This document shows, piece after piece, positions 6,900-25,281 of a stretch of DNA of 33,831 nucleotides. The notes beneath the pieces were generated by a model. That model saw only the letters and a list, made by a program, of their open reading frames with translations, was not told where the DNA came from and did no database searches. The position numbers and the translations under genes are program-made. Every line of letters starts with the position of its first letter. Within the stretch, counting starts at the first letter, position 1. The DNA is from Acidobacteriota bacterium (lineage in GTDB: Bacteria; Acidobacteriota; Terriglobia; Bryobacterales; Bryobacteraceae), in NCBI GenBank assembly GCA_025354885.1, contig JANXLY010000158.1, forward strand, positions 1 to 33,831, written 5' to 3'.

Positions 6900-7313
6900 A
6901 TGAAATGGTGGTCTCTCCTCGCGGCGAAGCTCGCTTTACTTGCCGCCCTTCATCTCGGCCTGATCCTCTGGATCAACGGATTTTTCCCCAAAGCCGTCGT
7001 CGGCCTTCACCTCGGGTACAGCTTTGCTGTCTTCGGTGCAGACCTCTTCCTCTTCGTCATCGGTTACGCACTCTGGCTCGACCAGAAGTACCGCTGCCGC
7101 AAATGTCTCAGCCGTCTCCGCATGCCACTCGCCAAAGGCAGTTGGTCCCACGCAACGCTCTTCGGCCATCCTCAACTCGAATGGATTTGCCCCTACGGTC
7201 ATGGCACCATGATCCAGGATGAAGTCCACCTCTCCGGTGCAGATCCGGATCACTGGATGAAAAACGACGCCGACTTCTGGAAGTCTTTCGAAGACTCCTG
7301 GCGCAAAAGCTGA
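6900..7313 (+). CDS. small membrane protein with a possible zinc-binding C-terminal domain
   Basis: This 137-residue protein has two predicted N-terminal membrane helices (about residues 3-27 and 36-60). A soluble tail follows with CRKC (CxxC) and, about 35 residues later, CPYGHG, together resembling a zinc-ribbon arrangement. It starts 16 nt after the proline dehydrogenase stop, so it is probably the last gene of that operon. Its TGA (7311-7313) directly abuts the stop of the convergent LolA-like gene at 7314, leaving no room for a terminator between them. I recognise no named family. Confidence 0.7.
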   Translation: MKWWSLLAAKLALLAALHLGLILWINGFFPKAVVGLHLGYSFAVFGADLFLFVIGYALWLDQKYRCRKCLSRLRMPLAKGSWSHATLFGHPQLEWICPYGHGTMIQDEVHLSGADPDHWMKNDADFWKSFEDSWRKS

Positions 7314-8081
7314 CTACTTCTTCGTTGCCTTCTCGGCATCCACCAGCGCCTGTATTTCTGGCGGCAGTGCAAACAAAATATCCGGCATCTTCTCGTTAAA
7401 TTTAACCGTTGTAAACGTCATCACCATCGCCACCGGTCCCATTTCGTTCGTCATCTTCACCGGAGTCTTGATCCCGTCCACAATCCGGTACTCATCCACA
7501 ATCGCCGCAATCGGCACCTCCCCCATCGGTGACGGCATAATCATATTCGTCCGTACCAGCAATCCCGTCGCCTTATCGTAAAACTGCTCTTCCGCCTTCC
7601 CCTCTTTCGGCGTCATCTTCAGCTTGTAAACCGTCTTCCCGCCCATCTGCTCCTCCCCCAACATCTCCGACTTCTGATAGCAGCTGTCCGTCTCCAGCGC
7701 TCCCCTCCCATACTCCGCCATCGCTCCTGACGCACAAATCGACAAAAACTTTTCAACCCCGGTCTTCAATCGCGGCCCCAACACCGTCTTGTCCCAAACC
7801 ACACTGCCATTACTGCCATCCTCCTGTTTTCCAATCCCCGGCAGGTCCACAACCGTGTAATACTTCCCGCCATCCACGCGATACATCCTCATATCGCCAC
7901 GAACATTCTGGCCCTTGATCTCCATCGTCCCCAGCATGCTCACGCTCTTCACTTTTGCGTAAGCCTCCTTGCCGCCAGTCACTTCAACGTAACGGTCCAG
8001 TACCTGTGCCGCCGTAGGCAGCACAACAGCTTTCTGCGCATAGGCAAAACTAACGCTGAGCAGTATGAGAAGGGTTCGCAT
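7314..8081 (-). CDS. secreted LolA-like outer-membrane lipoprotein-sorting-type protein
   Basis: This 255-residue protein has a signal peptide (MRTLLILLSVSFAYA). It then shows the beta-rich pattern of acidobacterial LolA/LolB-like proteins: ALPTAAQVLDRYVEVTGG-type opening (here PTAAQVLDRYVEVTGGKEAY), GTMEIKGQNVRGDMRMY, YYTVVDLPGIG, KTVYKLKMTPKEGKAEEQFYDKATGLLVR split over several strands, and a closing KMPDILFALP. It probably acts in the periplasm; the ligand is unknown. Its start lies inside the 3' end of the S41 peptidase gene (32-nt overlap), so the two form an operon. Confidence 0.7.
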   Translation of the reverse strand: MRTLLILLSVSFAYAQKAVVLPTAAQVLDRYVEVTGGKEAYAKVKSVSMLGTMEIKGQNVRGDMRMYRVDGGKYYTVVDLPGIGKQEDGSNGSVVWDKTVLGPRLKTGVEKFLSICASGAMAEYGRGALETDSCYQKSEMLGEEQMGGKTVYKLKMTPKEGKAEEQFYDKATGLLVRTNMIMPSPMGEVPIAAIVDEYRIVDGIKTPVKMTNEMGPVAMVMTFTTVKFNEKMPDILFALPPEIQALVDAEKATKK

Positions 8082-9318
8082 AAATCCAATCTAGCGCAGC
8101 CCCCAGCGCGCGGTCCTTGCCCGCACGCAATGCCGCAATACTATGCGCAATTTCAACATCCGGCTTCACCCCGTGTCCCTCCAGTTCCGCTCCACTCTCC
8201 GACACATAATTCGCCACCGCAAACTGAAACAGATCCCCATTCGGAAGGCTCTCGATCACACTGGGCAACGCTGCACCCGCCGTCCTGCTCCCAAAAATCC
8301 GCGCCCGCTTCAAGTCCTGCATCCCGCCCGCAAGAATCTCGCTGGTCGATGCTGAAGCCCCATCCACCAGAATCGCCAGCGGACCCCCAAACCCGTTCAG
8401 CCTCGGAATCACAATAAACTTCAGGTCCACCCCACGCTGATACATCGTCCCTAACTTCACCCCGCTCTCCTTCACAAACCACCCCGCCATCGCATTTGCC
8501 ATCACCGCCACTCCACCCGGATTCCCCCTCAAATCAATCACAAACCCCCGGCACTTCACACAACTTTGAATCGCCTTCTCAAACTGCGGCAACACCCTCA
8601 CCAAATCGAGAAACATGTCCAGCCGAAAGTATCCAACATCCTTACCCGCCCCCAGCAATGCAAACTCCCGCCCCACACTCATCCCCTGCACAAACCCAAA
8701 ACCCGCCGACCCATCCCCCTGCGGCAGCTTCAACGACACACTCTTCGCCACCTTCCCGTCTACCAAAAATTCATAAGTCAGCGTCTCCCCCGCATAGCCA
8801 CCAATCTGGTTCTGCAACATCTGGTGCATTCGCAATCCAGCCTGCATCGTCTCCCCTGCCTGCTTCTGTATTTCTAAAACAGCGGGCCGCAACGCCACAC
8901 CTTCCACTGCCACAACTTCCCACCCCAATTTCACGTCAGTCACCAGCCCACCCACCCCGGTCACAACAACCTTCCCCTCCACCAATCCAACCCGAAACCC
9001 CGGTGACGTCCCGCCACCAGAACGTAACGCCTTCGATGCTTTCACTTCAAACCCCGCAATCGCATAGTGGCTCTTCCCGATCTTCCCGATCATCTCCCGC
9101 AGGATCGTTCTCACTTCAGCCTGCCCCAGCGCCTCCTCCACACGTTTTCGATACTCCGGACGCAAGCTCTCCCAGCTCCCGCCTCCCGGCAACGCTTCCA
9201 GTTGCTTCGGGTTCCAGTGCTTTGCCGCAATCGTCCCCCACACTGCATCAAAGCTCTCTACCTGCTGCCCGCTCAACAGGCACACACTCATCCATACAGC
9301 AACAACACACGGCTTCAT
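8050..9318 (-). CDS. secreted S41-family peptidase, non-CtpA active site
   Basis: This 422-residue protein has a signal peptide (MKPCVVAVWMSVCLLSGQ) and a PDZ-like middle (VVVTGVGGLVTDVKLGWEVVAVEG). The S41 core follows: GFVIDLRGNPGG and the nucleophile segment DGASASTSEILAGGMQD, with Ser324 in the place of the catalytic Ser of Tsp/CtpA. The Lys that serves as general base in Tsp-type enzymes falls on Ala349 here (FGSRTAGAA). A His in GKIGKSHYAI (residue 84) could act instead, as in the tricorn/IRBP-like branch. Start 9318 is chosen because it begins the signal peptide. It is divergent from a rhodanese gene with only 22 nt between the starts, and it overlaps the downstream LolA-like gene. Confidence 0.82.
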   Translation of the reverse strand: MKPCVVAVWMSVCLLSGQQVESFDAVWGTIAAKHWNPKQLEALPGGGSWESLRPEYRKRVEEALGQAEVRTILREMIGKIGKSHYAIAGFEVKASKALRSGGGTSPGFRVGLVEGKVVVTGVGGLVTDVKLGWEVVAVEGVALRPAVLEIQKQAGETMQAGLRMHQMLQNQIGGYAGETLTYEFLVDGKVAKSVSLKLPQGDGSAGFGFVQGMSVGREFALLGAGKDVGYFRLDMFLDLVRVLPQFEKAIQSCVKCRGFVIDLRGNPGGVAVMANAMAGWFVKESGVKLGTMYQRGVDLKFIVIPRLNGFGGPLAILVDGASASTSEILAGGMQDLKRARIFGSRTAGAALPSVIESLPNGDLFQFAVANYVSESGAELEGHGVKPDVEIAHSIAALRAGKDRALGAALDWIYANPSHTAQR

Positions 9319-9340
9319 CCTTCCATTATCCTGTGAGTGG

Positions 9341-9685
9341 ATGCCCACCACAGACTTACCCCTCGAAATTCAAGCGAGCGAACTCGCCAGACTCCTCGCC
9401 GACAAGGCCCCTATCCTTCTCCTCGATTGCCGCGAAGATTACGAACACCAGATCGCCCGCATTATCCCCTCGGAGCTGATCCCCATGAACACCATCCCCT
9501 CCAACCTCAATCGCATCGAAGGCTTGGCAGAAGGCAAACAGCTCATCGTCTATTGCCACCACGGCGTCAGAAGTCTCAACACGGTCGTCTGGCTCCGTCG
9601 TCAAGGTCTTGAAAATGCCGTCAGCCTCACCGGCGGCATCGAGCGTTGGTCAATGGAAATCGACAACACTATCCCTAGGTACTAA
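9341..9685 (+). CDS. single-domain rhodanese (sulfurtransferase-like) protein
   Basis: This 114-residue protein is one rhodanese domain: ILLLDCREDYEHQIARIIP (N-terminal CH2A-type motif), then the active-site loop IVYCHHGVRSLN with Cys72, and the closing GGIERWS. Such proteins carry persulfide sulfur in the cytoplasm; the active-site Cys and the following Arg are intact. The gene is followed after 7 nt by a small charged protein, probably in one transcript. No strong Shine-Dalgarno is visible, and the promoter must lie in or overlap the divergent S41 coding region. Confidence 0.88.
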   Translation: MPTTDLPLEIQASELARLLADKAPILLLDCREDYEHQIARIIPSELIPMNTIPSNLNRIEGLAEGKQLIVYCHHGVRSLNTVVWLRRQGLENAVSLTGGIERWSMEIDNTIPRY

Positions 9686-14738: not shown

Positions 14739-16053
14739 TGTCCGGCTATTTTTTCGAGAAGACGTGCAAGTCATTCCAGGTCAATAATATACAGCCAATC
14801 CAGCCGGGAACGATTTGAAATTCCAAAATTTACCCCCTAGCCCAAAATTGCCTTTTTGCTTGCGAAACAATGAGGGATGAACGCTGGCCGCACCATTTTC
14901 TCGCAACTCATCGAGCATGCTCCAAGCAAGGACTTTCAGAAGTGCGTGGCACGATATCGCGGCGATGCTAACCCACGAGGCTTCTCTTGCTGGGATCAGT
15001 ATTTGGCAATGGTGTTCGCGCAATTCACTTATAGAGAAAGCCTGCGCGACATTGAGGCTTGCCTTCGCTCTATGCCGGGCAAGTTGTTCCACATGGGATT
15101 TCGCGGCAAGGTTTCGCGCACCACCTTGGCCGATGCCAACGAGAGTCACGACTGGCGCATCTATTCTGATTTTGTTCAGGTGCTGATCGGTATCGCTCGA
15201 CCAATGTATGTCGAAGACCCCATTGGAATCGATTTGAATCACAGTCTCTACGCGCTCGATTCGACCACAATCGACTTGTGTCTTTCGGTGTTTCCGTGGG
15301 CGAAGTTTCGCAAGCACAAGGCCGCCGTCAAGATGCACACGATCTTGGACCTGCACGGCAATATCCCCACTTTTATCAGCATTAGCAACGGGAAAGTGCA
15401 TGACGCGAAGATCCTGGACGAGATCTTTCCCGAAGTTGGAGCCTTCTACGTCATGGACCGAGGGTATGTCGATTTCGAACGACTTTACAGGTTCTCCTTG
15501 AGTTCTGCCTTCTTCGTCGTCCGCACCAAATCCAACGTGCTGCTGAAGCGTCGCTACTCACACGAAGTGGATAAAACCACTGGTTTACGATCCGACCACA
15601 CGGTCATCTTGACGGCGATTGGATCGGCTACGGCATATCCCGAAGTCCTTCGCCACGTGACAGACTACGACCAGAAGACGGAAAGAAGGCTGAAGTTTCT
15701 CACCAATAATTTCGCTTTGCCCGCACTTACAATTGCCCAGATATACAAATGCCGCTGGCAGATCGAATTGTTCTTCAAATGGATCAAGCAACACCTGCGC
15801 ATCAAGTCGTTCTATGGCACAAGCGAGAACACCGTGAAGACCCAGATCTGGATCGCAGTCTCAGTCTACGTTCTGGTTGCCATCATTCGGAAACGCCTCG
15901 GACTGGAGGCCACCCTTTACCAAATTCTACAGATTTTGAGCGTGACGATTTTTGTAAAAACACCGCTTTTACAGGCGATTCAAGGCATCGACTCCCAACC
16001 CGATTTAGTAGATTTCGGTAACCAGCTGATCCTATTCGCCTTATAGCCGGACA
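14739..16053 (+). mobile_element. complete IS4-family insertion sequence, about 1.3 kb
   Basis: The element is bounded by inverted 11-bp ends, TGTCCGGCTAT (14739-14749) and ATAGCCGGACA (16043-16053), and flanked by CTAG on both sides. One transposase fills it and reads toward the right end. If the outer palindromic bases belong to the IS, the inverted repeats would be 21 bp (14729-14749 and 16043-16063) and there would be no direct repeat. Nothing looks broken, so it may still be mobile. Confidence 0.85.
14877..16046 (+). CDS. IS4-family transposase (DDE, DUF4372 N-terminus)
   Basis: This 389-residue protein opens with the DUF4372-type region (MNAGRTIFSQLIEHAP, DQYLAMVFAQFTYRESLRDI). The DDE catalytic residues follow: Asp in YALDSTTIDL, Asp in FYVMDRGYVDFERL, and Glu in YKCRWQIELFFKWIK. 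That last segment fits the IS4 signature Y-(2)-R-(3)-E-(6)-K exactly. The frame is intact. Its TAG stop (16044-16046) lies inside the right terminal inverted repeat, so the coding region extends into the element's end. The product would bind the TIRs and cut and paste the element. Confidence 0.93.
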   Translation: MNAGRTIFSQLIEHAPSKDFQKCVARYRGDANPRGFSCWDQYLAMVFAQFTYRESLRDIEACLRSMPGKLFHMGFRGKVSRTTLADANESHDWRIYSDFVQVLIGIARPMYVEDPIGIDLNHSLYALDSTTIDLCLSVFPWAKFRKHKAAVKMHTILDLHGNIPTFISISNGKVHDAKILDEIFPEVGAFYVMDRGYVDFERLYRFSLSSAFFVVRTKSNVLLKRRYSHEVDKTTGLRSDHTVILTAIGSATAYPEVLRHVTDYDQKTERRLKFLTNNFALPALTIAQIYKCRWQIELFFKWIKQHLRIKSFYGTSENTVKTQIWIAVSVYVLVAIIRKRLGLEATLYQILQILSVTIFVKTPLLQAIQGIDSQPDLVDFGNQLILFAL

Positions 16054-17764: not shown

Positions 17765-20700
17765 TTAACTAAACAATAATTTCATTTCCGCAGCCAGCAA
17801 CTCCGCCTGCCCAAGCAGCCAGAAATGCCCCCCCTCAACAGCCACAAATCGGAACTGCCCGCCAGCCTCAAGCTCCCACCCGCGACCCAGCTCTTCGCTC
17901 TCCATCATCGCCGTAATCGGGATCTCGAGCGGCTCTTCAGTCGCATACCGATGCGCACCAAACATCTCTCGATCCGCCTTCAAAATCTCGCTACCCTCAT
18001 CCGCAATCGATTCAACCCGCGTCGCAGTCCTTCGTCCCTCAGGAGACCGGCAACTGCTCACAATCAATCCCGCCGGCATCGGCCCACCCCGCCGCCGTAG
18101 CTCACGCGCCACCTCAAACGCCAGCCCCCCGCCCATCGAATGACCAGCCAGTAAATACGGCTCCCCAGGCCCAACCATCCCTACTAACTCATCGCAAATC
18201 GGCCCAATCAATTCGCCAAAACTTTGGGCCAGCGCTTCCCCCGCTCGGTCTTCCCTCCCCGGCAGCAAAGCAGGAATCAGCGCAAACTCACCCCCCGTAG
18301 CCGCCTCAAGAAACTTCCACGCCTGCGTTCCAGCCTCCGCCCACGGAAACAGAAAAACTCGCTTCCCCTGACCCCAACGAACTGGGAAAAATCGCCTGAT
18401 CTTTTCACTCCGATAACGCTCAAGCCGCAATGCCAGCAACCTCCGCTTCGTGGCGCTCAAATGACTACGCTCCGCCCCCAACTTCCGTTCCGGCCTCGCA
18501 ATCGCCTTCCGGAAAACTCCCTCCAACGGCTTCACCGTCAGTCCACTCAGATACGCGAGCGCCGCCCCTCTTCCACGTGCCGCCAACTCCTCCCACTGCG
18601 CCTCATTCCCCAATACCTCGCGCAACACCCGAATCCACGGCCCCAAGTCCTGCTCAGGCACTTCCGCCTCAGGCACCATCTGGTCACTCAAACTGCTCTG
18701 GTAGCGCACGATTGGATTCACAGGCAAAACATGCTCCACTCCGCACATCGCCTCACGCAATCCGCCCACATCCGACGCCATCACCGGCACTCCCCGCGAG
18801 AGACTCTCCACCACCATCCGGCTCCGTGCCTCAGCCCACAAGCTCGGCACCAATGTTACTCGTGTCAACATCAGGATTTCGCTAATGTCTTCCACTGCAT
18901 CCAGTAACGTGATATTCGGCCGCAACGCCATAGCCGCAAGGTCACTCGCTGTCGTCCCCCAGCCCGGCACTGCTGCAAACTGCACTTCCGGAATCGCATC
19001 CGCCAGCCCCAAAAAGATCGGCAATCCCTTAACCGCGCTCGGGTTCACCAGCGTTACATAAGGGTTCTCAAAGCGTCCCAGCTCCGGTGGATTCGCGTGA
19101 TCCGCAAGCGAAATCGGCACATGCACTGCCTCCAGCCCGCCTTCTTCCCTGCAATATCGGGCCACATATTCACTCACTCCCACAACCGCGTCAGCCAGCC
19201 GCAATCGCTCCGTCCTCTCTGGACTTAAGCTAGAAGCATCCGGGCCAAAGGGCAGGGCAATTGTCGCCCGTACCAGATACACAACCCGCGCCCCTTCCTG
19301 CTGCAACGCTGTCTCAAAGAACAGATGCGCCGGGTCGTCCGTCGAACACAAAATCACATCAGGCCTGAACTGCCTCAAATCTTCATCGAGAACCTGCCGC
19401 AGCCTCGCGTCTCGAGTAACTACGCAGACTTCCTCTCCTGCCAGTTCAAAACGAACTCCAACATCGCCCCAGGCCCGCCACAAAATCCCTCGCATCTCTA
19501 ACTCACTAACATAAGCTTCGTGTTCTGCCTCGCCAAACCGCTCCAGCCTCGTGAATACGCGCACCAGATGCCCCTCGACAGCCAGTGCCTCCACCAGCAA
19601 ACGGTTCGATTTGTCGCCGCCGCCGGAACCAGGATAGTAAGTCGAGTTGTGAATCAGATAAATGCGCTGCCGTTTGACTACTAATCGACTCAGCAAGGTC
19701 TCAAGGTCATCCGCGCTCACCGCGGAGGCAAAAACTCTGGCCGCTTCCATCCCGCGCGCCCGTTCTTCCCGATACACCGCTTCGCTTCCCAATAGCTCCC
19801 GCAGCGCGCGCTCCCACATCTCAATATCTTGCGCCTCGATTACCCCGATCGGCATCCCCGTCTCATCCTGTTGCGGCAGCCAATTCGTAATCGGCTTTAC
19901 CGGCAATCGATACCGCGAAGAGGCCGCCGCCTCGTTCAGCCCTCCATGCGCACTAGCGAGCACTGGAATCCCCCGTAGCAGGGCTTCCGTCACCACTAGA
20001 CCAAAGCCTTCGTACCAGAGCGAAGGCGCAACAAACACCGTACTCTCCGCGAACACTTCGTCGATACCCGCAACGGTTTCAAGCACCCTCACATTCGGCA
20101 GAGCACGCATCGCCACCTCATCTGCCTTAGTCGTTGCCCAGCCCTTCAGCGCCAAAAACTCTTTGTCCGCAAATCGCCGCGCCAGTTCAAGAAAAATGGG
20201 CAGTCCCTTCACAACCGAAGGGTTGATCATCAGCACCGATTGCTTGTTAAAGTTGTCGTACTCAGGCCATGGCGCTTCCCCATACAGCGCTGGGTGCACG
20301 ATTTCTGTCTTGCGCCCCAGGTGCCTTTCAATGTAGTTTGCCATGTGTTCCCCGATCGAGACAATGGCCAACGCATCCTGCAACAATGCCGTCGCCGCTG
20401 CATCCGCATGCCACGCCTCCGGCCCAAACGGGAACCATTGCGGCGTATGCGCCAGATAGATCAGTCGGTCCTTTGCCGCCCGATGCGCTTCCCGCAACAA
20501 CGCATGCGACAGATCTTCACTCGACACCAGTACAAAGTCAGGATCAAACTCCGCCACTGCCTCGCCAACTCGATGTCCATTGCGTCCAAACTGCGCCACA
20601 CTCCGGATCCGCACTCCGTCTCGAAGCGTCTCTTGATCCGCATCCCCGCCACTGATCACAAGGCACTTATGCCCATTGGCTGCCATCGCGCGCAACCATA

Positions 20701-20770
20701 CTAAATTGCTGCGCGTCGACCCGCCCTTTGGCGGATCATACGACGCGCTAGCGGCTAACAGGATCCGCAT
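17765..20770 (-). CDS. GT4-GT4-thioesterase fusion protein
   Basis: This 1001-residue protein has three modules. Residues 1-365 and 366-750 are two GT4-type (GT-B fold) glycosyltransferase domains, each with the E-x7-E donor motif: Glu254/Glu262 in EGFGLVVTEALLRG and Glu647/Glu655 in EARSRMVVESLSRG. They are related by duplication: NPS(V/A)VKGLPIFL recurs at 183-194 and 576-587, and PSLW at 249-252 and 642-645. Residues about 803-1001 form an alpha/beta-hydrolase thioesterase of the type II (GrsT/RifR) class, with Ser878 in AGHSMGGG and His982 in EGGHFWL. The usual acid residue after the sixth strand is not obvious (ITAMMESEELGRGW has Glu where Asp is expected). Its start overlaps the end of the FkbH-ACP gene by 23 nt, so both are made together. 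A plausible role is transferring sugars and releasing or transferring the carrier-bound acyl unit; the substrates are unknown. Confidence 0.88.
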   Translation of the reverse strand: MRILLAASASYDPPKGGSTRSNLVWLRAMAANGHKCLVISGGDADQETLRDGVRIRSVAQFGRNGHRVGEAVAEFDPDFVLVSSEDLSHALLREAHRAAKDRLIYLAHTPQWFPFGPEAWHADAAATALLQDALAIVSIGEHMANYIERHLGRKTEIVHPALYGEAPWPEYDNFNKQSVLMINPSVVKGLPIFLELARRFADKEFLALKGWATTKADEVAMRALPNVRVLETVAGIDEVFAESTVFVAPSLWYEGFGLVVTEALLRGIPVLASAHGGLNEAAASSRYRLPVKPITNWLPQQDETGMPIGVIEAQDIEMWERALRELLGSEAVYREERARGMEAARVFASAVSADDLETLLSRLVVKRQRIYLIHNSTYYPGSGGGDKSNRLLVEALAVEGHLVRVFTRLERFGEAEHEAYVSELEMRGILWRAWGDVGVRFELAGEEVCVVTRDARLRQVLDEDLRQFRPDVILCSTDDPAHLFFETALQQEGARVVYLVRATIALPFGPDASSLSPERTERLRLADAVVGVSEYVARYCREEGGLEAVHVPISLADHANPPELGRFENPYVTLVNPSAVKGLPIFLGLADAIPEVQFAAVPGWGTTASDLAAMALRPNITLLDAVEDISEILMLTRVTLVPSLWAEARSRMVVESLSRGVPVMASDVGGLREAMCGVEHVLPVNPIVRYQSSLSDQMVPEAEVPEQDLGPWIRVLREVLGNEAQWEELAARGRGAALAYLSGLTVKPLEGVFRKAIARPERKLGAERSHLSATKRRLLALRLERYRSEKIRRFFPVRWGQGKRVFLFPWAEAGTQAWKFLEAATGGEFALIPALLPGREDRAGEALAQSFGELIGPICDELVGMVGPGEPYLLAGHSMGGGLAFEVARELRRRGGPMPAGLIVSSCRSPEGRRTATRVESIADEGSEILKADREMFGAHRYATEEPLEIPITAMMESEELGRGWELEAGGQFRFVAVEGGHFWLLGQAELLAAEMKLLFS

Positions 20771-22772
20771 TCTGCCCGGATTCCTCCCTCAACGCCGCTT
20801 CTGCTTCTTCTTCCGTCATTGCTTCGATGCCACCCAAAATTCGAGTGTACTCCGCATGCCCCATGCCTCCAAAGTGCACCAGCTCATCAATACGCCGCGC
20901 CATCCGCTCGAGCGTCACATCCGAAGCATAGACATCTTCAATCCCTAACCCGACACCGAACTCCTCACGCACCCGCATCAGCAGCAACACCACCTTCAAC
21001 GAATGGCCTCCCAGGTCAAAAAAGTTGCTCTCCCCCGCAACCCCTTCCACTTCGAGCAGGTCCTGCCAGATCGTTCCCAGCCTGGTCTCAGTCCCGGTCT
21101 CAAGGCTAACAGTGTTGCTCTTCCTCATCCGCCTCCGGATCGCTGCAACGCTCGTCAGCTCCTGGGCAATCCTTCCGTAATCCACCGTGTGCTCGGCCGC
21201 TACGCTCCGCTTCACTTCCACAATGCTCCGCTCCGCCTTCCGAGCCTCATAACGAAGCTCCGCCACTCGCTCCGCCTTCGCTCGCGCAGGAAACACTTCC
21301 ATCCCCAGCCCGGCCAGAAAGTCCTTGGCCGGTGCATTCTTCGTGCTCGAAGCAAACGGCACAAACACTTCCGCGCACTTCAGATCACAGGCATGGTTCC
21401 CGATCCAGGCAAACACCTGATGCTCTACCCCACGGCCCAATACCCTGCAGCTCAAAAGGAAGTTCTCGACCTTGTATTCGCCATTCCACGCCCGTCCAAC
21501 CAACAGCCCGGTGAACCCGTAATTCCCAAACCGGTCTCGCACATGAACCCCAAAAACTTCAATCCCCGATTGCATCAAACTCAACAACCCCGACTCGCTC
21601 CTGCGAATCGTTGTTAGGTTGAACTGATTGGTCCGCTGCGTCAACTGTGCCGCCCTCGGTACTTCCGATTCACTGATAGCTCGCACCTCAACCTCAAGCT
21701 CAAGAGTTGAGTAGAAGTGCTCGAGCGATCCTGCCTCGTGCAGCGCCTTCCCAAACTCCTGCACCCTCTCATAGCTCTCAGCCCGCCCCGCATCCGCGCT
21801 AGTCACCTTCAGCCGGTCAAAGGCCCAGACATGCTTGAGAAACTGCTCAAAGTCATTCGGGTCCTCAGGCAGCGTCAGCCCAAGCACCTGCGGCAACTGC
21901 TCATCCATCTCCGAAATCTCTTTCGGATTGTCATCAAGGAATATGAAGCTGTCGAGCCCCAGCGATAGCTCTGCTGCAAGGGCCGCCAGTCCAAGCGGCT
22001 TCGGGCTCCAGTCAATCTTCGTCGCGCTGATCTCGCTCCACTGGAGTGGAAACTCCGGATGCTGCTCAAAGGTCTCCCGCACATCCGTCGCATTGTTCTT
22101 GCTGCTCAACGCCAGCAGCATCCCTGCTTCGCGCTGCTCAAGGGCGAAGCGCTGCAAAGCCTCATGTCCCGCCCCGAGCTTGACCCCGTCCGGTCCATCC
22201 TCGCCACAGATTCCTTGCCACAAAGTATGATCACAATCGAGCGCCAACACCTTATACGGAGCTTGCAGGATACTGTGCGCTGCCCGGACTACCGCGCTAC
22301 CCAGAGCTACAAAATACTCCTCGGTATAAGGGATTCCACCGAGTTTCTCGCCCTCCGTGCTCAATTTGTGATCAACCGGATACCAGGCATCAATCCTCTC
22401 GACGGACAAGAAATAGGCCCCCGGAATCTCACGCCACCAATCGCCAGCTTCGTGATCGCAAACTACAAGCATCGGTACTGCCCATGCTCCAACGCGTGCT
22501 TCAATGGCCCCTACCAGAGCCTGCGCATTTTCGAGCCGTCTCGTCGGCTCACCCAGATCGCACCACCTTAGAAGCAGTACATTGAGCCCGTGCTGATTGC
22601 TGGCGAATACGCTCTGCTCGTCGAGCACCGTCTGTAGAATCTGGCCAAATGGCGCAAAACGGCAAAAAAACTCCGATTGCAATGGCTCTTTCCAAAACTC
22701 GATGCTGCTCGCAATCGGTTCAGCGGTGAACGTGGAAGCTAAGGTGAAACAGAAGGGAATCGAGGAAGCCAA
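20748..22772 (-). CDS. FkbH-like HAD-IIIC protein with C-terminal acyl carrier domain
   Basis: This 674-residue protein has an FkbH N-terminal region (TLASTFTAEPIASSIEFW, RFAPFGQILQTVL). The HAD core carries the nucleophile motif LDCDHTLW (Asp179, Asp181), the SSKNN motif at 223-227 and FIFLDDNP with Asp280/Asp281. A GNAT-like region follows (QRTNQFNLTT, VRDRFGNYGFTG, FLLSCRVLGRGVEH), and at about 555-640 an acyl/peptidyl carrier domain with Ser591 in FFDLGGHSLKV for phosphopantetheine. Characterised FkbH-type enzymes dephosphorylate 1,3-bisphosphoglycerate and load the glyceryl unit onto a carrier protein; here carrier and loader are fused. The phosphopantetheinyl transferase is not in the window. 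It is the first gene of the pair with the GT4-GT4-TE protein and is divergent from a membrane-PAS protein. Confidence 0.9.
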   Translation of the reverse strand: MASSIPFCFTLASTFTAEPIASSIEFWKEPLQSEFFCRFAPFGQILQTVLDEQSVFASNQHGLNVLLLRWCDLGEPTRRLENAQALVGAIEARVGAWAVPMLVVCDHEAGDWWREIPGAYFLSVERIDAWYPVDHKLSTEGEKLGGIPYTEEYFVALGSAVVRAAHSILQAPYKVLALDCDHTLWQGICGEDGPDGVKLGAGHEALQRFALEQREAGMLLALSSKNNATDVRETFEQHPEFPLQWSEISATKIDWSPKPLGLAALAAELSLGLDSFIFLDDNPKEISEMDEQLPQVLGLTLPEDPNDFEQFLKHVWAFDRLKVTSADAGRAESYERVQEFGKALHEAGSLEHFYSTLELEVEVRAISESEVPRAAQLTQRTNQFNLTTIRRSESGLLSLMQSGIEVFGVHVRDRFGNYGFTGLLVGRAWNGEYKVENFLLSCRVLGRGVEHQVFAWIGNHACDLKCAEVFVPFASSTKNAPAKDFLAGLGMEVFPARAKAERVAELRYEARKAERSIVEVKRSVAAEHTVDYGRIAQELTSVAAIRRRMRKSNTVSLETGTETRLGTIWQDLLEVEGVAGESNFFDLGGHSLKVVLLLMRVREEFGVGLGIEDVYASDVTLERMARRIDELVHFGGMGHAEYTRILGGIEAMTEEEAEAALREESGQNADPVSR

Positions 22773-22880: not shown

Positions 22881-24020
22881 TTGAAATCGTCCTATACTAA
22901 ATCGCTTTGGCTTTGGTCTCGCGGGATCTATAACCTCCCTCGTGTCCTCGGTTTGAGCATTCTGATCGTTTCGCTGTTCAGCCTGCCCTTTAATATGGCT
23001 GTGCCTGAAGCGTTTCGGGCCGATGTTCCCGTCCTGTTCCGTATCTATCCTGCAACTGCACTTGCCTTCCTGATGCTCGCCTTGAGCAATCATTTGTCCC
23101 GATGGGAACGGCTTGATCTCCGCTCTGCCAGCCGGGCGAAGTTCTCTCGTGCCCTTGCAGGTCTTGTTGCGCTTCTTTCGCTGCTCGATACACACACCCC
23201 AGTGCTACTCGCAGTGGGACAATGCATGCTCGCCTCTACAATTATTTTGCAAGCTTACGGCCGCTTCTTGCTGCCCCGGCGTGTATTGCTGATCTCCTCG
23301 TTGATTACGAGCACCTGGCTGATTCTGACCAACATCTATGCGGTTCATGGGCGCATCAGCCATGAGCTGACGGCCGATCCAGCCTCGGCACTTTTGTTGC
23401 TGCTTCTGACTCTCGCGATTGGCCTCGCCGACACCAAAACCGGCATGATTCCAGTCCGGCTCCTGCTGGCAGCTTTCGTCATTCCACTACTCGTCGGCTA
23501 TGCTCAGCTTCAGCTCGAATTGGCCTTCCCTGTCAACTCAAATTTGCTGCTTGCACTGCATGTGATGTCGACACTTCTCATCATTTCCGTATTGCTTTTC
23601 TACAGCCTGGCAAAGGCGAATGATCGGCTGGACGAACAGTTCAAGGTACAGGCAGAACTTGAGTCCAGAGAGCGCGTGCTGGAGACTCTGCTTGAGCAGG
23701 GCTCAGAGGTGTACATGACGATCAATCTTGCCGGCCGCCTGCTGAGCGCCAATGAAACAACCCGCCGCTACCTGGGCCTGCCAGACGTGCAACGAAATGT
23801 AATTTGTTTCGAAGACCTTGTCCTGAGTGAGTCCCATGACAAAATGCACAAACTGCCTGAAGCTCTCTTGAGAGGGATCTCGAACAACGCCGTCCTCCTC
23901 TTCAAGATGGCCGATGGAGAGCCCATGCCTCTACACATCACGGCTGCCTGCCGCATGCGCCAAGGTGCAGCCGAAGAGATCCTGCTCGTTGGCCGTTCGC
24001 TTTCGCCAGTTCCTAGCTGA
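22881..24020 (+). CDS. integral membrane protein with C-terminal PAS domain
   Basis: This 379-residue protein has about eight predicted membrane segments between residues 20 and 245. A short charged helix follows (KANDRLDEQFKVQAELESRE), then a PAS-like domain at about 265-375 (MTINLAGRLLSANETTRRYLGL, FEDLVLSESHDKMHKL). No histidine kinase, GGDEF or other output domain follows. The start is a TTG at 22881 with AAGGGG about 8 nt upstream; the next in-frame ATG would cut into the first membrane segment. It probably senses a membrane or redox cue and signals through a partner. Its 3' end overlaps the convergent LarA-like gene by 8 nt. Being divergent from the FkbH operon, it could regulate that operon, which is inference. 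Confidence 0.75.
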   Translation: MKSSYTKSLWLWSRGIYNLPRVLGLSILIVSLFSLPFNMAVPEAFRADVPVLFRIYPATALAFLMLALSNHLSRWERLDLRSASRAKFSRALAGLVALLSLLDTHTPVLLAVGQCMLASTIILQAYGRFLLPRRVLLISSLITSTWLILTNIYAVHGRISHELTADPASALLLLLLTLAIGLADTKTGMIPVRLLLAAFVIPLLVGYAQLQLELAFPVNSNLLLALHVMSTLLIISVLLFYSLAKANDRLDEQFKVQAELESRERVLETLLEQGSEVYMTINLAGRLLSANETTRRYLGLPDVQRNVICFEDLVLSESHDKMHKLPEALLRGISNNAVLLFKMADGEPMPLHITAACRMRQGAAEEILLVGRSLSPVPS

Positions 24021-25281
24021 CCTGAGCCAATACGTAAGGGCCCTCAGGGATCACTGCGATCCTCGACCCTGGCGCCAGACCTTCAACCAGCTTCGACATC
24101 GCTGCGTCGAAGTCTGAGAACACCGGTCCCCACATTGCTTGGTGATACTCGACCGGGACGCCCGGAGTCAGAAACACCACCTGCTTGCTCTCGAGCACTA
24201 GCGCCAGCTTCTCAAGCTGCCACTGGTCCACTTCGACCGGTGCCGCTTGGACGGCATCAAGAAACGCCTTCGGAGACGAAAACCGTTTCACCATCTCGCA
24301 GAACTCGGGCGCTCCGGCCCCCTCGGTGCACTCGGAGCAGATTAGGATCTTGCCGCCATCACGAACGATGTGCGATGCTGCCGTAACGCCCTTCACCGCC
24401 TGGTAAAAGGTCAGATCCAGCGGATATCCCGCACAGGTAGTCACTACTGCGTCTACGGGCTCACTCAGCTTCTCCAGCATCACTTCGCTGACAAAGGCAA
24501 CACCTGCAGCATGTGCCTTCTCGGGATGTCCGGCGAACACCGCAGCGATCTCTCTCTTTCGCGTGAGTGAGACGTCCAGCATGAAGCTGTGGCCTGCCAT
24601 GCGGGCAATCTCCTGCAGCTCTTTGTGCAGCGGGTTGTCGTGGATCGAACCCTCCACCGACAGCTTGTTTCTCATGAAGCGAGGGCTGTGAATCACCTTG
24701 ATCGTCTCTTGTGCTGCAAGGCCCGGTGCAACCAGCTTGCGGCCACCTGAATAGCCCAGCATCAGGTGCGGTTCAATGAAGCCCAGCGTAATTCGAAGGT
24801 CGGCCCCCACAAAGGCTTCAGCTACATGGACCGGGATGCCGCTTGTGGTCTGACCGAGATAGCGATGGTCGGCAAGGATCTTTGCGTCGTGATTGAAAAT
24901 ACGATATTGCGCCGCAATCTCAGGGCTCAGGATCTCGTCCAGCTCTGCCGGAGTGGCAATCCGGTGCAAGCCAGTCGCGATGCAGATCGTCACTCCGTCG
25001 ACTGGAATTCCGGCTTCGTGCAACACCTTGAGCAGCACCGGGAGCGTCCGCCGGTTTGGCACAGGACGCGTAATGTCGCAAACCGAAATGGCCGCAGTCT
25101 TCTTGCCAGCGGCCATTTCCCGCAAGGAAACACAACCAATTGGATGCTCGAGCGCGTCTTCAAGCGCAGCCCGCTCGTCCGCCAGCGGAGAGGCCGATTT
25201 GGCCTCCAGCAAGCGATATTCAAAACCTGTTGGCAAAGTTGCCTCTAACCCTGCCTTACCAAAGGCTAAATCCACTTTCAT
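24013..25281 (-). CDS. larA: LarA-like nickel-pincer lactate racemase
   Basis: This 422-residue protein matches LarA in length and active-site residues. His106 (GLHR), His172 and Lys182 (EPHLMLGYSGGRKLVAPG), His198 (IHSP) and Lys297 (YQAVKG) correspond, two or one residues offset, to the residues of Lactobacillus LarA that bind the nickel-pincer nucleotide and carry out catalysis. The family interconverts D- and L-lactate or other 2-hydroxy acids; the precise substrate of this homolog is uncertain because the LarA superfamily is diverse. The cofactor genes larB, larC and larE are not in the window. It is convergent with the membrane-PAS gene. Confidence 0.85.
   Translation of the reverse strand: MKVDLAFGKAGLEATLPTGFEYRLLEAKSASPLADERAALEDALEHPIGCVSLREMAAGKKTAAISVCDITRPVPNRRTLPVLLKVLHEAGIPVDGVTICIATGLHRIATPAELDEILSPEIAAQYRIFNHDAKILADHRYLGQTTSGIPVHVAEAFVGADLRITLGFIEPHLMLGYSGGRKLVAPGLAAQETIKVIHSPRFMRNKLSVEGSIHDNPLHKELQEIARMAGHSFMLDVSLTRKREIAAVFAGHPEKAHAAGVAFVSEVMLEKLSEPVDAVVTTCAGYPLDLTFYQAVKGVTAASHIVRDGGKILICSECTEGAGAPEFCEMVKRFSSPKAFLDAVQAAPVEVDQWQLEKLALVLESKQVVFLTPGVPVEYHQAMWGPVFSDFDAAMSKLVEGLAPGSRIAVIPEGPYVLAQVS

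What the first reader, a model, noticed from the sequence alone, without database searches (positions are those of the whole stretch)
17765..22772. Stand-alone FkbH-ACP plus GT4-GT4-thioesterase operon: possible glyceryl-thioester-dependent glycan modification system
Seen: two overlapping minus-strand genes encode (1) a HAD-IIIC/FkbH enzyme fused to a carrier domain with an intact GGHSL serine and (2) two GT4 modules fused to a type II thioesterase with GHSMG and a C-terminal His. Known: characterised FkbH-type enzymes load a glyceryl unit from 1,3-bisphosphoglycerate onto a carrier for polyketide or tetronate assembly. No ketosynthase, condensation, adenylation or acyltransferase domain is in the window, and the flanking genes are unrelated. 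Inference: the three-carbon unit is made on the carrier and then transferred by the TE module onto a sugar built by the GT modules, or released as a decorated glycerate. A TE fused to tandem glycosyltransferases is an arrangement I do not recognise.
Basis: partly seen in the sequence, partly recalled or inferred. Interest (0 to 1): 0.85.

Follow-up and report, generated by a model that had tools for sequence, protein, structure and literature searches.

The report
Carrier-bound glycerate glycosylation operon
A two-gene operon found in about half the genera of one soil-bacterium family appears to load a three-carbon glycerate unit onto a built-in carrier protein and hand it to two sugar-adding enzymes and a release enzyme, with no polyketide or peptide assembly line involved, so it probably makes a sugar-glycerate compound by a route not described before.

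Summary
Window 20748-22772(-) encodes FkbH (TIGR01686)-ACP. Window 17765-20770(-) encodes GT4-GT4-type II thioesterase and overlaps the first gene by 23 bases. The operon is not a PKS/NRPS remnant. FkbH-ACP, GT4#1 and GT4#2-TE stand together, in the same order and strand, in 37 of 40 loci examined from the family (Bryobacteraceae, inferred). All 91 genomes with a strong FkbH match also have the GT/TE. In most relatives the two GTs are separate genes. Neighbours vary. The carrier serine and TE Ser/His are essentially invariant, and dN/dS is about 0.1. The host genome has only two other carrier domains (stand-alone ACPs) and no condensation domain, so no assembly line exists to take the glyceryl unit. 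In three relatives the FkbH-ACP is fused behind a fatty-acyl-AMP-ligase-like domain, a carrier and a condensation domain. A Streptomyces plasmid has ACP, GT, a related GT4, TE and FkbH-ACP as adjacent genes. The best explanation is a self-contained pathway in which glycerate is loaded on the carrier, glycosylated, and released by TE as a glycosyl- or diglycosyl-glycerate. The chemistry is inferred; only anatomy, conservation and autonomy are shown. Caveat: the window's genus has lost the canonical TE Asp.

The parts
20748..22772 (-). Gene 1: FkbH (HAD-IIIC) protein fused to a C-terminal carrier domain, 674 aa (TTG start, uncertain)
   Evidence: TIGR01686 276.7 bits and PP-binding 45 bits; orthologues across the family
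21297..22256 (-). FkbH/HAD-IIIC domain (residues 173-492); motif DCDHTLWQGICGEDG with D179, D181 and C189
   Evidence: D179/D181 in all 39 aligned rows, C189 in 38, C180 in most
20889..21083 (-). Carrier (PP-binding) domain; Ser591 in FFDLGGHSL
   Evidence: serine invariant in 39 aligned rows
17765..20770 (-). Gene 2: GT4-GT4-thioesterase fusion, 1001 aa; start overlaps the gene 1 stop by 23 bases
19685..20770 (-). GT4 module 1 (residues 1-362), EGFGLxxxEA (E-x7-E) motif
   Evidence: own clade in the GT4 tree
18521..19675 (-). GT4 module 2 (residues 366-750), EARSRxxxEA (E-x7-E) motif
   Evidence: own clade in the GT4 tree
17768..18361 (-). Type II thioesterase-like domain (residues 804-1001); GHSMG Ser878 and His982; canonical acid (GxxD) not present in this genus
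   Evidence: PF00975 81 bits; nearest solved relatives are TE II enzymes such as YbtT and RifR; alignment

Best explanation
A self-contained, carrier-tethered pathway to a glycosylated glycerate. (1) The FkbH domain takes the glyceryl unit from 1,3-bisphosphoglycerate, removes the phosphate and loads D-glyceryl on the phosphopantetheine of its own fused carrier. (2) The two GT4 modules, an old duplicated pair, add sugars in turn to the tethered glyceryl (glycosyl, then diglycosyl). (3) The TE fused to the second GT releases the product, probably as the free acid (a diglycosyl-glycerate-like molecule). In one lineage a fatty-acyl-AMP-ligase-like domain, a carrier and a condensation domain fused in front would also acylate the glyceryl, giving a glycolipid. 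Shown: domains, intact key residues, operon and its conservation, and absence of PKS/NRPS modules in the host. Inferred: substrate of FkbH, acceptor and donors of the GTs, and what TE does.
For: FkbH and PP-binding above curated cut-offs. Strict co-occurrence, 91 of 91 genomes. Same order and strand in 37 of 40 loci, with variable neighbours. Carrier Ser, FkbH D-x-D and TE Ser/His conserved. Purifying selection, dN/dS about 0.1. Own genome has 3 PP-binding domains in all and no condensation domain, and complete single-contig relatives G099 and G144 likewise lack condensation domains. In 3 relatives AMP-binding + DIP2-like domain (FAAL-like), PP-binding and Condensation are fused N-terminally, with HHxxxD and carrier serine motifs present, and in G056 and G074 this is the only condensation domain of the genome. 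A Streptomyces plasmid has ACP, GT, related GT4, TE and FkbH-ACP side by side. A relative of this GT4 is fused in front of an NRPS with terminal TE in G250, so the GT4 group goes with carrier-bound substrates elsewhere. FkbH loading of glyceryl on ACP is the accepted or proposed role in tetronate, methoxymalonate and suomilide/varlaxin pathways (PMC7489565, PMC10143770).
Against: No biochemistry. No sugar-donor genes in the operon, so donors are unknown. In the window's genus the TE acid residue (GxxD) is replaced or shifted, so TE activity there is less certain. GT#2-TE occurs without FkbH nearby in G065 (L090), so the parts are not strictly inseparable. A relative of the GT4 on a Niveispirillum plasmid has no FkbH match within about 12 kb. 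The host has one detected PPTase of the short AcpS type, and AcpS does not always modify NRPS-like carriers (own knowledge).
Confidence: 0.42

Rival explanations
1. The GTs build a separate sugar acceptor (free or lipid-linked) and the TE acts as an acyltransferase, moving glyceryl from the carrier onto that sugar as an ester.
For: Same anatomy. FkbH-ACP-TE tri-domain proteins sit in polysaccharide gene clusters with sugar-nucleotide genes and exosortase genes in a Planctomycetota plasmid, and in another Acidobacteriota family, which fits glycerate decoration of a glycan. Loss of the canonical TE Asp in the genus would be compatible with a changed activity.
Against: Most of the family keeps a complete Ser-Asp-His set as in hydrolytic TEs. 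No conserved polysaccharide or lipid-carrier gene lies next to the family operon. The FAAL-C-FkbH form points to further building on the tethered glyceryl.
Confidence: 0.25
2. A glycolipid system: a fatty acyl group is joined to the tethered glyceryl in all members (in cis in the FAAL-C lineage, in trans elsewhere), and the GT/TE parts finish and release an acyl-glycerate glycoside.
For: Three relatives carry FAAL-like, carrier and condensation domains fused to FkbH-ACP with the same GT and GT-TE genes downstream. In the FkbH tree these fused forms branch nearest the PKS/NRPS-type relatives, so the fused state could be ancestral.
Against: No condensation domain anywhere in the window's genome or in 12 other operon carriers checked, and the three fused members are the only ones seen among the loci examined.
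Confidence: 0.18
3. A decayed or displaced fragment of a PKS/NRPS cluster, or a loader supplying glyceryl units to an assembly line elsewhere in the genome.
For: More distant FkbH homologues sit in PKS/NRPS clusters (L003, L004, L005).
Against: Own genome has no PKS/NRPS carrier module and no condensation domain. The unit is under purifying selection and conserved across 44 of 84 genera of the order. The window has no KS/AT/C/A domain in the proteins scanned.
Confidence: 0.03
4. The HAD-IIIC domain loads some other acyl phosphate than 3-phosphoglyceryl, so the product is a different glycosylated short acid.
For: No substrate was tested here; TIGR01686 is a domain-level family.
Against: The characterised or proposed FkbH loaders use 1,3-bisphosphoglycerate (PMC7489565, PMC10143770), and the motif DCDxTLWxGxCGEDG is shared with homologues in PKS/NRPS clusters.
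Confidence: 0.1

Closest known systems
Glycerate-utilisation operon of tetronate antibiotics (FkbH-like, ACP, FabH-like, acyltransferase, dehydratase; e.g. mad genes, PMC7489565)
   Same: FkbH-like enzyme loads glyceryl on an ACP
   Different: There the glyceryl goes to a PKS chain through a FabH-like enzyme. Here FkbH and ACP are one protein, no FabH-like gene is in the operon, and GT4s and TE follow
Methoxymalonyl-ACP operon (FK520 type; PMC7489565)
   Same: Starts with glyceryl-ACP made by FkbH
   Different: Needs two dehydrogenases and an O-methyltransferase feeding a PKS; none in this operon
Suomilide/varlaxin AerB loading module (FkbH-PCP with MT and ST domains; PMC10143770)
   Same: FkbH-carrier fusion with modification of the tethered glycerate
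   Different: Part of an NRPS; modified by methyl and sulfo transfer, not glycosylated; no NRPS in the present host
Glucosylglycerate/diglucosylglycerate primer of mycobacterial MGLP (GpgS, GpgP, DggS; PMC4555173)
   Same: Proposed product type: two sugars on glycerate, further acylation possible
   Different: Made from free 3-phosphoglycerate and a nucleotide sugar without any carrier protein or thioesterase
Streptomyces sp. NBC_00441/NBC_00209 plasmid cluster (ACP, EryCIII-like GT, GT4, TE, FkbH-ACP)
   Same: Same set of parts, adjacent, with a GT4 relative at about 33-37% identity
   Different: Separate genes, one GT4 only, a Cys in place of the TE Ser, sugar-nucleotide genes included; function undescribed as far as searched

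Membership tests
FkbH domain (TIGR01686) / HAD-IIIC | Profile score above curated cut-off | tested here: met
   276.7 bits against 146.65
FkbH domain (TIGR01686) / HAD-IIIC | HAD D-x-D motif and conserved Cys in the motif region | tested here: met
   D179/D181 in all aligned rows, C189 in 38 of 39
FkbH glyceryl loader | Transfers glyceryl from 1,3-bisphosphoglycerate to a carrier | not testable with these tools
   needs intact-protein mass spectrometry
Carrier protein (PP-binding) | Profile match and phosphopantetheine serine | tested here: met
   45 bits against 20.8; GGHSL serine invariant in 39 rows
PKS/NRPS gene cluster | KS, AT, C or A modules in the locus or available in the genome | tested here: not met
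   no such domain among the window proteins scanned; no condensation domain and no other multi-domain carrier in the genome
Tetronate glycerate-utilisation operon | FkbH-like, ACP, FabH-like, acyltransferase and dehydratase together | tested here: not met
   only FkbH and carrier present; neighbours unrelated and not conserved
Methoxymalonyl-ACP operon | Two dehydrogenases and an O-methyltransferase next to FkbH and ACP | tested here: not met
   not among the flanking proteins scanned
GT4 glycosyltransferase | Glycos_transf_1/Glyco_transf_4 domains and E-x7-E motif | tested here: met
   two stretches each; motifs EGFGLxxxEA and EARSRxxxEA conserved
Type II thioesterase (PF00975) | Profile match, GHSxG serine and C-terminal His | tested here: met
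   81 bits against 26.4; Ser and His conserved
Type II thioesterase (PF00975) | Third catalytic residue, Asp in GxxD | tested here: not met
   present in most of the family, replaced or shifted in the window and its four genus relatives
Mycobacterial MGLP glucosylglycerate pathway | GpgS and GpgP acting on free 3-phosphoglycerate | not tested
   no such gene in the operon; rest of the genome not searched for it

The most novel reading that the evidence does not exclude
A carrier-protein assembly line for sugars: glycerate is held as a thioester, glycosylated twice on the carrier by dedicated GT4 modules and released by a TE fused to the last glycosyltransferase, with an optional fatty-acyl loading and condensation module. 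This would be a minimal glycosylglycerate or glycolipid synthase independent of PKS and NRPS, widespread in one bacterial order.
Probability: 0.38. Interest if true: 0.78.

Novelty: new variant of a known kind. Interest (0 to 1): 0.62.

Why it matters
Glyceryl-carrier chemistry is known as a side branch that feeds polyketide or peptide assembly lines. Here it appears, conserved across about half the genera of an order of soil bacteria, wired to two glycosyltransferases and a thioesterase in genomes with no assembly line. If right, it is a small carrier-tethered route to sugar-glycerate compounds (possible solutes, glycan primers or glycolipids) in a little-studied bacterial group. It gives a compact, testable system with three enzymes whose chemistry can be read by mass, plus a natural lipid-adding variant.

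Tried and rejected
PKS/NRPS fragment: rejected. Structure prediction gave weak models (pLDDT 58 for FkbH-ACP with three sequences, 35 for the GT-GT-TE from one sequence), so no fold search was run and nothing rests on them. A first domain search of loci L003-L005 returned nothing because the files named in the script were not found; repeated correctly. Literature searches for FkbH with glycosyltransferases and thioesterase, with polysaccharide terms, or with Acidobacteria found no description of this arrangement; the library holds open-licence papers only, so this is weak evidence of novelty. An MFS transporter gene lies convergent to the operon end in several relatives, but it is not next to the operon in the window and was not taken as a part.
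Full report
WHERE IT IS. The window equals a whole contig (G000:C328, 33,831 bp) of a 6.6 Mb, 431-contig draft genome, 98.8% complete. A genus-mate contig is the same length as, and carries the same gene as, a GenBank MAG contig named Bryobacter sp. (L002 and L010; both 11,341 bp).

OBSERVATION. Two minus-strand ORFs: 20748-22772, 674 aa, and 17765-20770, 1001 aa; the second starts 23 bases before the first ends. Protein 1 is FkbH/HAD-IIIC with a C-terminal carrier domain; protein 2 is GT4-GT4-thioesterase. The 16 window proteins scanned hold no KS, AT, C or A domain; flanks are a Pro dehydrogenase, S41 peptidase, agmatine-deiminase-type protein, FAA hydrolase, an IS4-type transposase, a LarA-type racemase, DUF4331 and others.

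CONSERVATION. FkbH-ACP relatives occur in 131 of 200 genomes of the family at E<=1e-30 and GT/TE relatives in 100 of 200. Taking the strong FkbH matches (E<=1e-100), 91 genomes have them and all 91 also have the GT/TE; 7 have GT/TE without a strong FkbH match, of which two have only truncated FkbH matches (from the tables). In the whole order (257 genomes) 102 genomes in 44 of 84 genera have the GT/TE. In 40 loci fetched at up to 20 kb, chosen mostly because they had a match, 37 hold FkbH-ACP, GT#1 and GT#2-TE in that order on one strand; in one (L085) an aldo-keto reductase gene lies between GT#1 and GT#2-TE. Exceptions: L090 has GT#2-TE alone, L100 ends at a contig end, L101 has FkbH alone. 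In most genera GT#1 (about 400 aa) and GT#2-TE (about 650-770 aa) are separate genes; the fusion seen in the window occurs in its genus and several others. No other neighbour is common to the loci: the two next most frequent protein clusters occur in 10 of 41 loci each. dN/dS against genus relatives is about 0.1, with saturated dS.

KEY RESIDUES. Carrier serine 591 is invariant in 39 aligned rows. FkbH D179 and D181 are invariant, C189 is present in 38 of 39 and C180 in most. Both GT4 modules keep E-x7-E. TE GHS(M/L)G serine and the C-terminal His are conserved. The usual TE acid (GxxD) is present in most of the family but replaced or shifted in the window and four genus relatives L065-L068. 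GT#1 and GT#2 form two separate clades, each covering the family, so the duplication is older than the sampled genera.

AUTONOMY FROM PKS AND NRPS. The window's genome has only three PP-binding matches: this one and two in ORFs of about 100 aa, i.e. stand-alone ACPs; one of these lies beside a FabH-like gene and an SGNH-type esterase (own reading of the sequence). It has no condensation domain, nor do 12 other operon carriers, including the single-contig genomes G099 and G144. G099 has three PP-binding matches in all. The glyceryl unit therefore has no assembly line to go to. The genome has one detected PPTase-family match, in a 126-aa frame, of the AcpS type.

THE FAAL VARIANT. In G056, G033 and G074 the FkbH-ACP is the C-terminal half of a protein of about 1,830-1,890 aa. 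Its N-terminal half holds AMP-binding plus a DIP2-like AMP domain (as in fatty-acyl-AMP ligases), a carrier and a condensation domain (Pfam for G056 and G033; for G074 the condensation and carrier matches are). The HHxxxD and carrier-serine motifs are present, and the same GT#1 and GT#2-TE follow. In G056 and G074 that condensation domain is the only one of the genome. By normal NRPS logic the condensation domain joins the upstream acyl group to the downstream acceptor, here the tethered glyceryl, whose nucleophiles are hydroxyls; an ester is expected (inference). In the FkbH tree these three form a clade that is the nearest family branch to PKS/NRPS-type and other outside relatives (97/98 support), so the fused form could be ancestral or a single gain (the drawn root is the midpoint).

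OUTSIDE THE FAMILY. Two Streptomyces plasmids hold ACP, an EryCIII-like GT, a GT4 related to GT#1/GT#2 (33-37% identity), a TE and FkbH-ACP as neighbouring genes, with sugar-nucleotide genes. In NBC_00441 the TE has Cys in place of Ser. G250, another Acidobacteriota family, has a related GT4 fused to two NRPS modules (Condensation, AMP-binding and PP-binding, two each) and a TE. FkbH-ACP-TE tri-domain proteins occur in polysaccharide-type clusters of Aquisphaera (Planctomycetota) and G496. Among 347 genomes of the phylum sample, only the window's genome and two others have a GT#2-type match, so the GT4 group is rare. More distant FkbH homologues sit in PKS/NRPS clusters (domain reading of L003-L005 from the translated sequences, own reading).

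HOW IT LIKELY WORKS. [quoted passage not shown] Inferred: the same loading here on the fused carrier; then GT4 transfer of sugars to the glyceryl hydroxyl(s); then release by the TE that is fused to GT#2. GT4 is a retaining family (own knowledge), so alpha-glycosides are expected. [quoted passage not shown] A diglycosyl-glycerate is thus a reasonable product class, but the sugars are unknown. The main rival is TE-catalysed transfer of glyceryl onto a sugar.

VERDICT. The membership features that can be tested are met for the domains (except the TE acid in this genus) and not met for any known glyceryl-ACP operon. I rate it a new variant of a known kind (glyceryl-carrier chemistry), with a credible but unproven possibility of a new type of carrier-tethered glycoside synthesis.

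Noticed in passing
window 14877-16046 (+): IS4-type transposase with DUF4372, about 1.7 kb beyond the 3' end of the operon; its ends and target duplication were not examined.
   Followed up: no
window 24013-25281 (-): LarA-type nickel-pincer racemase; scores below the curated cut-offs of the LarA and malate racemase models, so its substrate is open.
   Followed up: partly
window 22881-24020 (+): Gene divergent from the operon, hydrophobic and without a Pfam match; relatives lie next to the operon in three other members of the genus (L065, L066, L067).
   Followed up: partly
L105 11947-14958; L110 9204-12197: FkbH-ACP-TE tri-domain proteins inside polysaccharide-type clusters of Aquisphaera and another Acidobacteriota family; undescribed as far as searched.
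   Followed up: partly
L116 1070-9961 (+): GT4 fused to a two-module NRPS with TE (2963 aa), preceded by a GT2 gene: a glycosyltransferase built into an assembly line.
   Followed up: partly
L098 about 7078-9527 (-): GT#2-TE reading frame broken between GT and TE in G102; frameshift or assembly error.
   Followed up: no
L071, L073, L079, L080, L081, L089 (3' end of the operon): A gene of one cluster, identified as an MFS exporter-like protein in L073, lies convergent to the operon end in several relatives.
   Followed up: partly
L118 2682-5241: Second stand-alone ACP of the window's genome beside a FabH-like gene and an SGNH-type esterase; role unknown.
   Followed up: no
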